A stretch of DNA of 62,049 nucleotides from Mycobacteriales bacterium (GTDB lineage: Bacteria > Actinomycetota > Actinomycetes > JAFAQI01): assembly GCA_035504215.1 (NCBI GenBank), contig DATJSI010000025.1:1-62049 (forward strand), in the 5' to 3' direction. Positions 1 through 62,049 of the stretch are shown one piece after another (the first letter of the stretch is position 1; every line of letters begins with the position of its first letter). The position numbers were made by a program, and so were the translations under genes. The notes beneath the pieces were generated by a model. That model searched no databases. It was not told the DNA's origin and saw nothing but the letters and a program-made list of their open reading frames with translations.

Positions 1-1155
<1,155 letters not shown>

Positions 1156-24925: not shown

Positions 24926-25065
24926 CTCGCCTCCGCTCTGCGTCGCGCGAACACGGTCCGCGTCGATCGGGAGCAGGAGGTTGGGCACGAACGGGTGTCG
25001 CCGCATCGCACGGATGCGAGGACCGGGCTGGCGATGGCACCGGCGCCGGTCGCGCGACCACCGCT
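24926..25065 (-). other. ribD leader after the riboswitch (expression platform)
   Basis: 140-nt leader between the FMN aptamer and ribD. It has a GC-rich dyad directly after P1 (around 25043-25066) and a 5-bp stem GCATC/GATGC near 25010. There is no T tract, so control at translation or through Rho is more likely than an intrinsic terminator. The SD GGAGG before ribD lies at about 24931-24935. The ORF extension through this stretch has no family support. Confidence 0.5.
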
Positions 25066-25218
25066 CGCGCGCTGCCTCTCATCCGGACTCTCACCGTCGG
25101 TCCTGGACTCACACCAGGTCCACCGGCCGATGGCGTCGGCCGGGTCGCGGACTGCGGACCCGCCGCAAGGCGGGCCGTTCACCGCCGGTTCGGGGTTTCA
25201 CCGATCCCGGAGCGCGCG
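25066..25218 (-). promoter_or_regulatory. FMN riboswitch (RFN element)
   Basis: On the minus strand the ordered RFN blocks are present: GATCGGTGAAACCCC, ACCGGCGGT, GGACCTGGTGTGAGTCCAGG, ACCGACGGTGAGAGTCCGGA and ATGAGAGGCAG. The closing P1 stem pairs 25211-25218 with 25066-25073 (8 bp). It lies upstream of ribD, as expected for FMN repression of riboflavin synthesis. A CACAAT hexamer near 25237 might be a -10 of a local promoter. Confidence 0.93.
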
Positions 25219-25270
25219 GGGCGTTCGCCTCCATTGTGCACCGGGAACCGGGCATCGGGATCCGGGACGG

Positions 25271-54598: not shown

Positions 54599-55324
54599 TC
54601 ACGCAGCGTGGGCGACACCTGTGGTGAGGACGAACGGGGCGGCGTCACCGATCTGCACGGTTGCCTCGCCGTTCTGGACCGAGATCAGCGCGAAGATCTT
54701 GTCGAAGACCGTGCCCTGGTCGCTGCTCGGACCCGGCGCCTGGACGGTGTACTCGCGGAACTTGTGGTGGGCATAGCCGACCTTGAACTTCGCGGTCTGA
54801 CCCTTGGTCCCGGTCAGCTCGATCCAGAGCGGGCCACCGGCAGCCTTGGTGCCGCCACCCGAGTGGGACGACGACGGGTTGGGGCTCGGCGAGGTGCCGC
54901 TCGAGGGGGTCGACGACGGGCTGCTCGCCGGCACCGTGGACTGCGACACGGGCGAGCCGCCGGTGTCGACCGGTGCGGTGATCAGCGGGATGAACGGGTC
55001 GCGTGCGGCGGGGTGCTTGTTGACCTTCGGCAGCGTCGTCGTACCGCCCTTGTGGGTCTTGCCGGTCGAGGACGGCTGCGACGAGGCCTGTGCCGAGACG
55101 GTCGCGTGGGGAACGACCGCGGCGGTCGGCGTGGAGGAGCCGCCCTTGTGCAGGAGCAGGAAGGCTGCCGCGGCAAGCACGATGACACCCGCCGCACCAC
55201 CGAGGATCAGCAGCCGACGCCGGTTGCCGCCCTCAGGACCGTCACCGTCCGGCTGCACCGGAAGCATCCCGACGCCTTCGTCGGTTGCCGCGCCGGCCGG
55301 GGGCATCGTTGTGGACTCAGTCAT
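54599..55324 (-). CDS. PilP-like membrane-anchored protein of the pilus operon
   Basis: 241-aa protein with a cytoplasmic N-terminus (1-37), one transmembrane helix (38-58, after GNRRR), and an exported part. RDPFIPLI (108-115) resembles the RDPF block of PilP-type pilus alignment proteins. A Ser/Pro/Thr-rich linker (~120-160) leads to a beta-rich domain (~165-235). It is the last gene after pilM, pilN and pilO, the place of pilP. No secretin is expected in a monoderm, so a PilQ link is unlikely. Assignment by position and motif only. Confidence 0.6.
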   Translation of the reverse strand: MTESTTMPPAGAATDEGVGMLPVQPDGDGPEGGNRRRLLILGGAAGVIVLAAAAFLLLHKGGSSTPTAAVVPHATVSAQASSQPSSTGKTHKGGTTTLPKVNKHPAARDPFIPLITAPVDTGGSPVSQSTVPASSPSSTPSSGTSPSPNPSSSHSGGGTKAAGGPLWIELTGTKGQTAKFKVGYAHHKFREYTVQAPGPSSDQGTVFDKIFALISVQNGEATVQIGDAAPFVLTTGVAHAA

Positions 55325-58053: not shown

Positions 58054-58839
58054 TCACGATCCCGAAGTAATACGGGTATAAGCGTGCGCAAGGGGATGGC
58101 CGGCATAGATCCCCACCAAAAGGCCGATCAGCATGAATGGCCCGAAGGGAACCCGGCTCTTGCGCCCACCCCCGCGCATCCCCACCACTACGACGATGCT
58201 GACGACCGCACCGATCACGAATGCGGCAAATGCCCCGACCAGCAGCTGGCCCCACCCGAGCCATCCGAGGTACATCCCGACCACGCCGGACAGCTTGACG
58301 TCCCCTAAGCCCATTCCGGCCGGATAGACGAGCCATACGAGCCCGTAGAAGCCGGCCAGGGCGGCCATGCCCAGCAACGCCCGCACGTAGGCGTGTGGCG
58401 CGTTGTCGGCCCACGCCGCGGCACCGAGCAGCGCTAGGCCGATCGGGTACGACGGCAGCGTGAGCGCGTCCGGGAGCCGCAGCAGGTCGAGGTCGATCAT
58501 CGTGAGCGCCACCCCGACCGCGGCCAGGTAGAGGTACGCCGGCAGGTCGGCGTGAATCCCGAAGTGCAGGCCGAAGGCGACGAACAGTGCGGCGGTCGCG
58601 AGCTCGACCAGCGGGTAGCGAACCGAGATCCGTGCGCCACAGCTGCGGCAGCGCCCGCGCAGGATCACCCAGGACACGACCGGGATGTTGTCCCGATGCT
58701 CGATCGGCGCATCGCACTGCGGGCAGTGCGATGCCGGGTGCGCCACCGACTCCTTGCGCGGCACCCGCCAGATGACGACATTGAGGAACGAGCCGATCGC
58801 CAGCCCGAGCAGCCCGATGATGACGAGCAGGCCGGCCAC
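58054..58839 (-). CDS. pilD: Type IV prepilin peptidase (A24), with N-methylase domain
   Basis: 261-aa membrane protease that cuts and N-methylates prepilins. The N-terminal domain has the Cys4 set C39, C42, C64, C67, and the GSFLNVVIWRVPR start. Six to eight helices follow, with catalytic Asp in TMIDLDLLRLPD (D116 or D118) and Asp180 in GLGDVKL. GTG 58839, weak SD. It lies just before pilM and after the pilin genes, so one locus holds substrates and processing enzyme. Confidence 0.93.
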   Translation of the reverse strand: MAGLLVIIGLLGLAIGSFLNVVIWRVPRKESVAHPASHCPQCDAPIEHRDNIPVVSWVILRGRCRSCGARISVRYPLVELATAALFVAFGLHFGIHADLPAYLYLAAVGVALTMIDLDLLRLPDALTLPSYPIGLALLGAAAWADNAPHAYVRALLGMAALAGFYGLVWLVYPAGMGLGDVKLSGVVGMYLGWLGWGQLLVGAFAAFVIGAVVSIVVVVGMRGGGRKSRVPFGPFMLIGLLVGIYAGHPLAHAYTRITSGS

Positions 58840-58874: not shown

Positions 58875-58900
58875 AGTGGGCTCGCGACCGCGAGCCCACT
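58875..58900 (-). terminator. Terminator between pilin genes and pilD
   Basis: Perfect inverted repeat: the first 12 bases AGTGGGCTCGCG pair with the last 12, CGCGAGCCCACT (11-bp stem, 4-base loop). It lies 6 bases past the stop of the lectin-like pilin on the minus strand. There is no T run, which is common in actinobacterial terminators. It could also act on a plus-strand transcript. Confidence 0.75.
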
Positions 58901-58906
58901 CGGTGA

Positions 58907-60679
58907 TCAGCCGCCCGAGCTGTTTTCCTGGATGCTGCTGAGCCCCGCTGCCGGGTTCGTCGGCGGCGCGTTCCACTTGAGCAACAGGTAGTTCTTCGTC
59001 GCCGACGCGGCAGACGGGATGTTGCTCCCGTCGCAGGACGTGACCACGATCTGCGCCCAGCCCACTGATGTCTGCGACGGGTCGGGCGCCATGCAGTAGC
59101 CGTCCGCCTTGTTGATCAGCAGGTAGGAGTTGGCGTAGGTGTTCGCGACGCCGGTGGGATCCCAGAGCTCGTTGTCAGGAGGCGTGCCGGTCGGGCACTG
59201 GACGCCGTAGACCAAGCCGTTCAGCGTGCCGGGTGAGACCAGGCAGTCCTTCACGGACGACGACGGACTCGACGGGATGCACCCGCCCGCACCCGCCGCG
59301 CAGTTCGTGTAGAAGATGCCGTACGACCCGGACACCGTCTGGAAGTGCCAGATCTGGTTCCATGTCAGGGTGGTGGAGTCCGGCGCCTGCTTGCACGGGT
59401 AGGCGATCAGCTTGTTGCTGAAGTTCTGCCCGTTGACGTCCAGGCAGTTGCCGAACAGCGCGTAGTTGGCGAACTGCTGGGTCGGCGAGCCCGGGACGCC
59501 GGTCGTGTTGCTGCCCGACTTGCCGGCACCGACCTGCGGGTCGGGATACCAGGCGGTCAGGTCCTGCGACGACCCGCTGCAGGTCACCAGGCTCAGCGCC
59601 GCACCGGCAACGGCGGCCGATGAGGTCGTCACGCCGGCGCCCTCGAGGCAGCCGCCGGGGTCCGGCGACGTGCTGCCGCCGACCTTGCCGTCGTTGATGT
59701 CAGGTGCTTCGAGCTGGCCGTTGTCGTTGTAGGCGAACTCCTGCTCCTGCTGGGTCTGGTTGGCGTACGGGTACGTCGTGCCGGACCCACTTGTGGCGCA
59801 GGTCTCAAGCTTCGGTGTCCCGGCGTGACCGTACGTGCTGGTCACGTTCTGGATGCAGAGATCCAGGGTCGTGTCACCGCCGTAGAACAGCGTGAGGTCG
59901 CCGCGGTACTGCCAGGTCTGCTGCGGGGTGCCGAGCGCGAGGCAGGGCTCCATCGTCGGAATAGTGCCGGCGCTGGGCTCCGCGGAGCCCGCATCGAGGC
60001 ACATCTGGTCCTGGCCGCCGCTGTTGTACTCGGCCATCCGGCCGCCGACGGTGTTGGTGTTGGTGGCGTTGAACTCGTACACCGCGTGCAACGTCCGGTC
60101 ACCCTCTGCGGTGCCGCTGTAGCCGGGCAGCTGCCCGCTGAGGCCGTAGGACTGGATGAACGCGTAGGTCGGCACGTACTTCACGATGCCGGCCTTGCAC
60201 GGGATCGCGTTCGACGACCACCAGCTGGTCGTCGAGTCGGTCTCGTGCGAGGTCGGGTCGGTCTGGAAGTACGTGATCACCGCACGGTAGGTCGCGGTCT
60301 CGCTCGACGGCGTGATCTGCTCGACGGTCCCGGTGATCTGGTCGCCGGCAACGGTCACCGTCTGTGCCGGGCTGCCCACGGTCAGCGTCACGCCGCCGGA
60401 GTCGCTCGGGTCCGTACAGGGCAGCTTGGTGAGGTCACCGCCACCGTTCGTCGAGGTGTTGCGCAGCTGGCCGAGCGCGGCCTGCATGCCGGCCTGGGCG
60501 GCGTCCACCGTCCGCACCTGCTTCTGTGCAAGCGTCGTCGGTCCGACCTGGTTGATCATGATGTTGGCCACCGCGACGCTTACCACCGCGATGATGAGGA
60601 TCAGGAACAACGTGAAGATCAGCGCGAAGCCGCCGTCGTCGTTCTGACGGCTGCGCACGATCCGGATCAATCGGTTCAT
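58907..60679 (-). CDS. Large pilin-like protein with QxW (ricin-B-like) lectin motifs
   Basis: 590-aa protein. A prepilin-like N-terminus has NDDGGFALIFTLFLILII; cleavage would follow Gly17, giving Phe at +1, but position +5 is Phe22 instead of Glu. A PilX-like stalk (~30-80) follows. From ~225 to 550 there are Cys-rich repeats of the form CLD...PC...QxW: QTW at 254-256, QIW at 442-444, with CIQNV, CLEGAG and CLDVNG blocks. These suggest beta-trefoil R-type lectin units. ATG 60679 overlaps the PilW-like stop as ATGA. Sugar binding is inferred. Confidence 0.75.
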   Translation of the reverse strand: MNRLIRIVRSRQNDDGGFALIFTLFLILIIAVVSVAVANIMINQVGPTTLAQKQVRTVDAAQAGMQAALGQLRNTSTNGGGDLTKLPCTDPSDSGGVTLTVGSPAQTVTVAGDQITGTVEQITPSSETATYRAVITYFQTDPTSHETDSTTSWWSSNAIPCKAGIVKYVPTYAFIQSYGLSGQLPGYSGTAEGDRTLHAVYEFNATNTNTVGGRMAEYNSGGQDQMCLDAGSAEPSAGTIPTMEPCLALGTPQQTWQYRGDLTLFYGGDTTLDLCIQNVTSTYGHAGTPKLETCATSGSGTTYPYANQTQQEQEFAYNDNGQLEAPDINDGKVGGSTSPDPGGCLEGAGVTTSSAAVAGAALSLVTCSGSSQDLTAWYPDPQVGAGKSGSNTTGVPGSPTQQFANYALFGNCLDVNGQNFSNKLIAYPCKQAPDSTTLTWNQIWHFQTVSGSYGIFYTNCAAGAGGCIPSSPSSSVKDCLVSPGTLNGLVYGVQCPTGTPPDNELWDPTGVANTYANSYLLINKADGYCMAPDPSQTSVGWAQIVVTSCDGSNIPSAASATKNYLLLKWNAPPTNPAAGLSSIQENSSGG

Positions 60680-61296
60680 GGACGACCAACCTGGGTGCAT
60701 GTTGCGGTGGTGGGTGCGGTGTCTGACGTCGAGTTGATCGCAGTCAGGGTGACCTGGCTGTTCGAGCTCGTGGAGGGCGCGCCGCTGGTCGCCGTGAATG
60801 TCACGGTCAGCTCTTCTTTTGCGTCCGCCGACGATGTCGGCGAGATCGAGAAGACCGGGGTCGAGCCGACCTGGCTGATGCCGATCGCGGCGGTCGACCA
60901 GTTGGTCGCCGTCACGGTGCCAGTGCCGGTCAACGGGGGCTGCCAGGTCCGCCATTGCAACTTGCCGCCGGCCGAGACCCAGCGCCACTGAGTGCAGGTC
61001 TGCTGCTGACCGGTGTTGCCGGTCTGGAACTCGAAGTAGAAGTTCCCGTCCGTGCCGGTGCCGGGCGCGGTGATCGCATTGGCGTACCGCGCCGAGTGGT
61101 CCAGCAGCGTGATCACCTTGCGGGCGGCGGACATGTCGTTGCTCTGACCGTTCTGCCGCCGGCTCTCGCGCATCATGTTGACGATCGCCGTCGTGATGAT
61201 CGCCATGATCATCGTGAAGATGATCATCACCACCAGCAGCTCGATGAGGGACGTGCCCTCATCAGAGCGCTGGATCCGGTCTCGTAGTCGACGCAT
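60676..61296 (-). CDS. Type IV prepilin (PilW-like minor pilin)
   Basis: 206-aa prepilin with a 14-residue basic leader, cleavage after Gly14 in DEGTSLIELLVVMIIF (Thr at +1, Glu at +5), a hydrophobic helix (~17-41), and a globular part (~60-200) with paired Cys. Position +1 is Thr and not Phe, which PilD can accept in other species. It lies between the IPT protein and the lectin-like pilin, overlapping the latter by 4 bases. Confidence 0.85.
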   Translation of the reverse strand: MRRLRDRIQRSDEGTSLIELLVVMIIFTMIMAIITTAIVNMMRESRRQNGQSNDMSAARKVITLLDHSARYANAITAPGTGTDGNFYFEFQTGNTGQQQTCTQWRWVSAGGKLQWRTWQPPLTGTGTVTATNWSTAAIGISQVGSTPVFSISPTSSADAKEELTVTFTATSGAPSTSSNSQVTLTAINSTSDTAPTTATCTQVGRP

Positions 61297-61298
61297 CG

Positions 61299-62049
61299 CT
61301 AGCTCGCCGTCATCGTCTTGGAGTAGGCGTTACTGACGCCGCCGTCGGGGTTGGTGACCGTGATGACCACCGTCACGCTCCCTGAGGTCGGTGTGGCGAG
61401 CGCCTTGGCGCTGAAGCTCAACGACGTCGAGCTCGTGACGGTCGTCGCGGAGATGCTCGTCATCGACGTCCCGTTCTCGGTGATCGTGACCGTCGCGCCG
61501 CTCACGAAGCCGGTGCCGGTCAACGTGTAGGTCGTCGACGAGTTGTGCTTGACGGTCGCCGGCGTCACCGCCGTGATCGTCGGTGCCGCGTCAACCGTCA
61601 GCCCGATGGATGCCGATCCGCCGTCGGGGTTGGTCACCGTGATGGTGTCGGTGCCCGTGGCGGTCGCGTTGAAGTTGTTCAGCACGATCGAGGTCGAGGT
61701 GATCGTGCCGACCGTCCAGGTGCCGTTGCTCGCCGCGACGGTCAGGCCCGACTGGAAGCCGGTGCCGACCAGCGTGATGGTCTTCGCCTGGCCCTTGACG
61801 ACCGGCGAACCCGTGATCGACGTGAGGGTCGGCTTGGGGGTGATGGTGATCGAGTAGCTGGACACGCCCCCGTCGGGGTTGGTCACGGTCAGCAGGTCCG
61901 GACCGGTCGACGTGGGCAGGAAGTTGTTCAGGGTGATCGACGTCGAGGTCACCGTGCCCAAGGTGAACGTGCCGTTCGCGGCCGCCACGGACAGGCCGGT
62001 CTGGAAGCCGGTGCCGGTCAGTGTCTCCGTGTGGGACACGCTGACGAGC
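61299..62049 (-). CDS. IPT/TIG-repeat protein of the pilus locus (partial, 5' end missing)
   Basis: C-terminal 249 residues of a longer protein that runs off the right edge. Three IPT/TIG Ig-like units are seen, each with LTGTGF or LVGTGF near its start and VTNPDGG near its end. No cell-wall sorting signal or anchor is seen at the C-terminus (KTMTAS). The stop TAG is 2 bases before the PilW-like ATG, so it is co-transcribed. If its missing start has a prepilin leader it would be a pilus tip protein; otherwise a secreted adhesin. Confidence 0.75.
   Translation of the reverse strand, partial: LVSVSHTETLTGTGFQTGLSVAAANGTFTLGTVTSTSITLNNFLPTSTGPDLLTVTNPDGGVSSYSITITPKPTLTSITGSPVVKGQAKTITLVGTGFQSGLTVAASNGTWTVGTITSTSIVLNNFNATATGTDTITVTNPDGGSASIGLTVDAAPTITAVTPATVKHNSSTTYTLTGTGFVSGATVTITENGTSMTSISATTVTSSTSLSFSAKALATPTSGSVTVVITVTNPDGGVSNAYSKTMTAS
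61342..61883 (-). repeat. Tandem IPT repeat units (DNA level)
   Basis: The 14-mer CCGTCGGGGTTGGT (plus strand) recurs at 61342-61355, 61621-61634 and 61870-61883, spaced 279 and 249 bases (93 and 83 codons). Each copy encodes the end of VTNPDGG. The repeats mark domain duplication within the IPT gene, and further copies are likely beyond the window. Confidence 0.8.

What the first reader, a model, noticed from the sequence alone, without database searches (positions are those of the whole stretch)
61299..62049. IPT/TIG-repeat protein encoded in the pilin operon
Three Ig-like IPT units precede, in the same transcription unit, two pilin-like genes. Such repeats often act as surface stalks. Its start is outside the window, and no anchor is seen at the C-terminus, so it may itself be attached through the pilus. 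Together with the lectin-like pilin this may be a tip-adhesin set.
Basis: partly seen in the sequence, partly recalled or inferred. Interest (0 to 1): 0.6.

Follow-up and report, generated by a model that had tools for sequence, protein, structure and literature searches.

The report
Pilus subunit carrying seven Ig-like repeats
The cut-off gene at the window's edge is the tail of a large type IV pilus subunit carrying about seven Ig-like (IPT/TIG) repeats, encoded next to a lectin-bearing subunit; it is probably part of a sticky pilus tip in an actinobacterium and is a new example of the already known "modular pilins".

Summary
The window is one whole contig (C25) of a draft Frankiales-like genome, and the gene runs off its end. 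The missing 5' part lies at the end of contig C142. The two ends share 4 bases, join in frame and keep the 83-residue repeat period exactly. The inferred protein has 840 residues: a prepilin leader (PDEG|FSMVE), a PilV/GspI-like pilin module, then seven IPT/TIG units. Only three of these lie in the window, and the first of those is cut. Two related MAGs carry the gene uncut (680 and 570 aa; 5 and 4 units) among the same pilin genes. So the protein needs no C-terminal anchor, because it is itself a pilin. The third pilin, with a ricin lectin, lacks Glu5, like the GspK/PilX tip cap. Across Actinomycetes-class genomes the same slot holds large pilins with other modules (Big_9, He_PIG, PKD) or none. 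Best reading: a modular minor pilin in a tip complex, with the TIG stack acting as stalk or adhesive arm. Filament membership is a strong inference. Tip position and adhesion are untested. Modular pilins are known (Raynaud 2021), so this is a new member of a known kind.

The parts
61299..62048 (-). 3' part (249 codons plus stop) of the TIG modular pilin gene; the 5' part lies on contig C142 (L006:6450-8225)
   Evidence: contig ends at 62049; in-frame join with a 4-base overlap to C142
61833..62048 (-). TIG unit 5 of 7 (72 of its 83 residues in the window)
   Evidence: unit spans the contig junction with the exact 83-residue period
61584..61832 (-). TIG unit 6 of 7
   Evidence: 111.7 bits to the unit model; NF058597
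61302..61583 (-). TIG unit 7 of 7, C-terminal, no anchor after it
   Evidence: PF01833 23.7 bits (cut-off 20.9)
60676..61296 (-). second minor pilin (206 aa), DEG|TSLIELLVVM leader with Glu5; GspJ/PilW-like by position
   Evidence: N_methyl 20.8 bits, just under cut-off 21.2; the G013 counterpart hits GspJ weakly (25.3 bits, cut-off 64.85)
58907..60679 (-). third minor pilin (590 aa) with ricin-type lectin domain; leader DGG|FALIF without Glu5; GspK/PilX-like cap by position
   Evidence: PF00652 40.9 bits (cut-off 29; scanned as 58907-60688); start set by ATGA overlap; for Glu5 loss in counterparts
58054..58839 (-). prepilin peptidase PilD
   Evidence: A24_N_bact 124.8 bits, Peptidase_A24 41 bits
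56837..57916 (-). PilM
   Evidence: PilM_2 152.9 bits
56154..56840 (-). PilN
   Evidence: PilN 33.1 bits
55337..56152 (-). PilO
   Evidence: PilO 44.2 bits
54599..55324 (-). membrane protein with Ser/Thr/Pro linker and ARDPFIPL motif; PilP-like by position, no family match
   Evidence: sequence; no PilP family; inference only

Best explanation
The gene encodes a modular minor type IV pilin. The prepilin is held in the membrane by a class III leader, cut by PilD (encoded three genes downstream) between Gly and Phe, and inserted into the pilus through its N-terminal alpha-1 helix, Glu5 being present. Its pilin module is PilV/GspI-like. Seven tandem IPT/TIG units grafted on its C-terminus project from the filament as a stalk or adhesive arm. 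It most likely sits with the next two pilins in a tip complex: a GspJ/PilW-like subunit and a Glu5-less GspK/PilX-like cap that carries a ricin-type lectin. The lectin would bind glycans, and the TIG stack would give reach, or bind surfaces itself. Shown here: repeats, leader, conserved gene order, uncut homologues and Glu5 loss in the cap. Inferred: processing, assembly, tip position and adhesion. The stated confidence is for the modular-pilin claim; the tip-adhesin role alone I would put near 0.6.
For: The own genome has TIG matches of this kind only at the facing ends of C25 and C142, with contig lengths 62049 and 58224. The ends share GCTC, join in frame, and GxGF motifs fall at 343, 436, 520 | 603, 686, 769. 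C142 carries pilB, pilT, pilC and three pilA-like genes before it. The leader matches N_methyl at 27.2 bits (cut-off 21.2) and PilV TIGR02523 at 27.8 bits, below its cut-off 52.2. Uncut homologues with the same neighbours are found in G002 (680 aa) and G010 (570 aa). G013 has the same order with five Big_9 units, and its third pilin has a ricin lectin too. The third pilin lacks Glu5 in the window, G002, G013 and seven further class members, and one of those hits PilX_N weakly. In S. [quoted passage not shown]
Against: The full gene is not on one contig in this genome, so the junction is inferred. PilV, GspJ and GspK matches are all below the curated cut-offs. AlphaFold models were poor (mean pLDDT 40 and 28), so neither the pilin fold nor the TIG fold is confirmed structurally. 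Some minor pilins lie along the shaft rather than at the tip (PMC10191384). Nothing here shows ligand binding.
Confidence: 0.8

Rival explanations
1. Same modular pilin, but spread along the filament shaft (like PilV or PilX of Neisseria), with the TIG stack acting only as a spacer or as shaft decoration rather than as part of a tip adhesin.
For: System-specific minor pilins can be distributed along filaments (PMC10191384). The TIG pilin keeps Glu5, so it can sit anywhere in the helix. The Ig-like module of S. sanguinis PilC has no clear function (PMC9934059).
Against: A 600-residue arm is more easily placed at a tip. The gene order PilV-like, J-like, K-like, and a neighbour without Glu5, match tip-complex operons.
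Confidence: 0.15
2. An independent secreted or wall-bound TIG protein that only happens to lie beside the pilin genes.
For: In the window alone no start or export signal is visible.
Against: Partner contig and two uncut homologues all start with a class III prepilin leader, and the neighbours are conserved.
Confidence: 0.02
3. C142 and C25 carry two different TIG pilins, or the gap hides further whole repeats, so the length of 840 aa is wrong although both are pilin parts.
For: Only 4 bases overlap; a gap of a whole number of repeats would also keep the phase. No 16-mer or longer is shared.
Against: No other TIG place of this kind in the genome; one PilB/PilT pair in a pil cluster, on C142; order pilA - TIG pilin - second pilin identical in relatives.
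Confidence: 0.12

Closest known systems
Modular type IV pilins, e.g. PilB and PilC of Streptococcus sanguinis (PMC8179133, PMC9934059)
   Same: N-terminal prepilin module with bulky C-terminal modules; monoderm host; PilC has an Ig-like module and a lectin; proposed three-pilin tip complex.
   Different: Here the Ig-like stack (7 TIG units) and the lectin (ricin type, not ConA-like) sit on two different pilins; TIG is not named as a module in the main text of the 2021 survey.
Actinomycete large pilins with He_PIG (PF05345) or PF13620 modules catalogued in the same survey (Actinoplanes proteins in its Fig. 8)
   Same: Those two Pfam modules are found here in large pilins of class members that match the same pilin-module profile.
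   Different: Repeat family differs: IPT/TIG (NF058597) in this family-level group. That the Actinoplanes proteins sit in the same operon slot was not checked.
PilV/PilW/PilX and GspI/GspJ/GspK tip minor pilins
   Same: Gene order and, for the third, absence of Glu5; weak profile matches.
   Different: All matches are under the curated cut-offs; both outer subunits carry grafted modules.
PilC/PilY1 tip adhesin of diderm T4aP
   Same: Would do a similar job: present binding modules at the tip.
   Different: PilY1 is not a pilin; no PF05567 match was found here, but the control search also found none, so absence is not shown.

Membership tests
Modular type IV pilin | N-terminal class III prepilin leader with Glu5 and hydrophobic alpha-1 | tested here: met
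   PDEG|FSMVEMMVALLIIAIVSAA; N_methyl 27.2 bits over cut-off 21.2
Modular type IV pilin | Extra domain not specific to pili grafted C-terminal to the pilin module | tested here: met
   Seven TIG units after residue 235; G023 counterpart is the pilin module alone, 218 aa
Modular type IV pilin | Pilin fold of the N-terminal module | tested here: inconclusive
   AlphaFold2 on the G002 homologue gives a long helix then strands but pLDDT about 40
Modular type IV pilin | Assembled into pili | not testable with these tools
   needs pilus preparation
IPT/TIG repeat protein | Match to TIG/IPT family models | tested here: met
   PF01833 over cut-off in the window part, G002 and G010; NF058597 over cut-off
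PilV / GspI minor pilin | Match to TIGR02523 or TIGR01707 at the curated cut-off | tested here: not met
   27.8 bits vs 52.2; 14.7 vs 44.35
GspK / PilX tip cap (third pilin) | No Glu5 after the cleavage site | tested here: met
   FALIF in the window; Glu5 absent also in G002, G013 and seven other class loci
GspK / PilX tip cap (third pilin) | Match to the family model at cut-off | tested here: not met
   GspK 12.7 bits vs 130; PilX_N 19.9 vs 25.5 in G045 only

The most novel reading that the evidence does not exclude
Actinomycete type IV pili share a two-armed tip: a PilV/I-like pilin with an exchangeable stack of Ig-like repeats (TIG, Big_9, He_PIG, PKD) and a Glu5-less K-like pilin with its own module (ricin lectin here), doing the job of PilY1 and varied between lineages by module swap and repeat number.
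Probability: 0.45. Interest if true: 0.5.

Novelty: new member of a known kind. Interest (0 to 1): 0.35.

Why it matters
It extends modular pilins to an IPT/TIG stack and pairs it with a lectin-bearing pilin in one operon, in a little-studied group of actinobacteria. The conserved slot with exchangeable modules gives a direct way to ask how pilus tips gain new binding targets and how repeat number sets reach.

Tried and rejected
Independent secreted TIG protein: rejected, because the prepilin leader was found on C142 and in two uncut homologues. PDB sequence search with the pilin module and with the TIG part: no hits. AlphaFold2 on the G002 TIG pilin and the window lectin pilin: confidence too low, so no fold search was run. 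The scan of genome contigs gave only two relatives. The PilY1 search is uninformative because no control rang. The held papers include none with both 'TIG domain' and 'type IV pilin'. The supplementary dataset of the 2021 survey could not be read, so whether TIG is among its 264 architectures is unknown. The promoter and terminator scan gave nothing above chance.

Full report
What is there. The window is the whole of contig C25 (62049 bases) of a draft genome of 3.47 Mb in 150 contigs. Its nearest named relatives found here are Frankiales/Frankiaceae MAGs. At the end of the window an open frame on the minus strand, 61299-62048, runs off the contig. It contains three IPT/TIG-like units, supported by Pfam TIG and by NCBIfam NF058597.

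The missing start. A search of the own genome with this part found other places only at the end of contig C142 (58224 bases), in a frame that also runs off its contig. The last four bases of C142 (GCTC) equal the first four of the window's minus strand. Joined there, the frame stays open, giving 840 residues, and the GxGF motifs keep their spacing across the junction (520 to 603, then 686 and 769: 83 each). Exact phase argues against a gap of arbitrary size; a gap of whole repeats cannot be excluded.

Anatomy. The protein begins with a basic leader and PDEG|FSMVEMMVALLIIAIVSAASVAFF, a class III prepilin signal with Glu5 (N_methyl 27.2 bits, cut-off 21.2). Residues about 32-225 form a pilin module that resembles PilV weakly (27.8 bits, cut-off 52.2). 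Seven units follow from residue 235. Each scores 72-112 bits against a model built from the units themselves, while shuffled repeat sequence reaches at most 1.3. The protein ends directly after unit 7, with no anchor. It needs none if it is a pilin.

Independent confirmation. Two relatives carry the gene uncut: G002 (680 aa, 5 units) and G010 (570 aa, 4 units), 54-55% identical over the pilin module. In G002 the order is pilA-like, TIG pilin, 207-aa pilin, ricin-lectin pilin, with 4-base ATGA overlaps between the last three. In the window the spacing is 2 bases and then a 4-base overlap. In G013, from another family of the class, the same order is kept, but the large pilin carries five Big_9 units instead of TIG, and the third pilin again has a ricin lectin.

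Wider survey. A profile of the pilin module found a match in 50 of 297 genomes of the class at E <= 1e-10, most in open frames of 450-750 aa. Some profile members came from these genomes, so their scores are circular; the single-sequence search (G013 3e-21, G023 1e-29) is not. Modules found by Pfam in 21 of these proteins include Big_9, He_PIG, PKD, TIG, BiPBP_C and CarboxypepD_reg. G023 has the pilin module alone. In the window, G002, G013 and seven further class loci, the third pilin lacks Glu5, the mark of the GspK-type tip cap (PMC9934059).

The machine. The pilus cluster is split between the two contigs: pilB, pilT, pilC and three pilA-like genes on C142, and PilD, PilM, PilN, PilO on the window. 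Two further prepilin-like genes lie elsewhere, on C62 and C44.

How it probably works. The TIG pilin is cleaved by PilD and enters the filament by its N-terminal helix; it probably forms a tip complex with the two pilins that follow, as proposed for PilABC of S. sanguinis. The lectin on the cap would bind glycans, and the TIG stack would extend or bind. Processing, assembly, place and binding are inferences.

Known or new. Modular pilins with 264 architectures were described in 2021 (PMC8179133), including PF05345 and PF13620 pilins, with Actinoplanes among the examples. The TIG stack is a new example in that class as far as the main text shows; the supplement was not readable. Interest is moderate: a correct and useful reading of a cut gene, not a new kind of system.

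Noticed in passing
window 1-1153 (-): Partial 16S rRNA gene cut by the other contig end (Rfam RF00177, 1175.7 bits); could place the organism precisely.
   Followed up: no
window 25065-25219 (-): FMN riboswitch (RF00050, 72.1 bits).
   Followed up: no
window 58876-58899: Perfect inverted repeat GTGGGCTCGCG-GT-CGCGAGCCCAC between the lectin pilin stop and the PilD start, without a T run; perhaps an attenuator or RNA processing site (sequence).
   Followed up: no
window 54599-55324 (-): Membrane protein after PilO with an ARDPFIPL motif, PilP-like by position though the host is presumably monoderm; no family match to PilP.
   Followed up: partly
L006:4659-6432: Three pilA-like genes in a row (leaders with GFTLIELLVVIIIIG or GFSMIELLVVIIIIG) before the TIG pilin; relatives show one to three.
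   Followed up: no
G000:C62:35244-35321 and C44:44259-44333 (L090, L091): Two further prepilin-like genes outside the pilus cluster; three more secretion-type ATPases on C125, C107 and C32, perhaps Tad systems.
   Followed up: no
L040:4967-5620 (-): G023 counterpart of the large pilin has no module and ends in a Ser-Pro repeat tail.
   Followed up: partly
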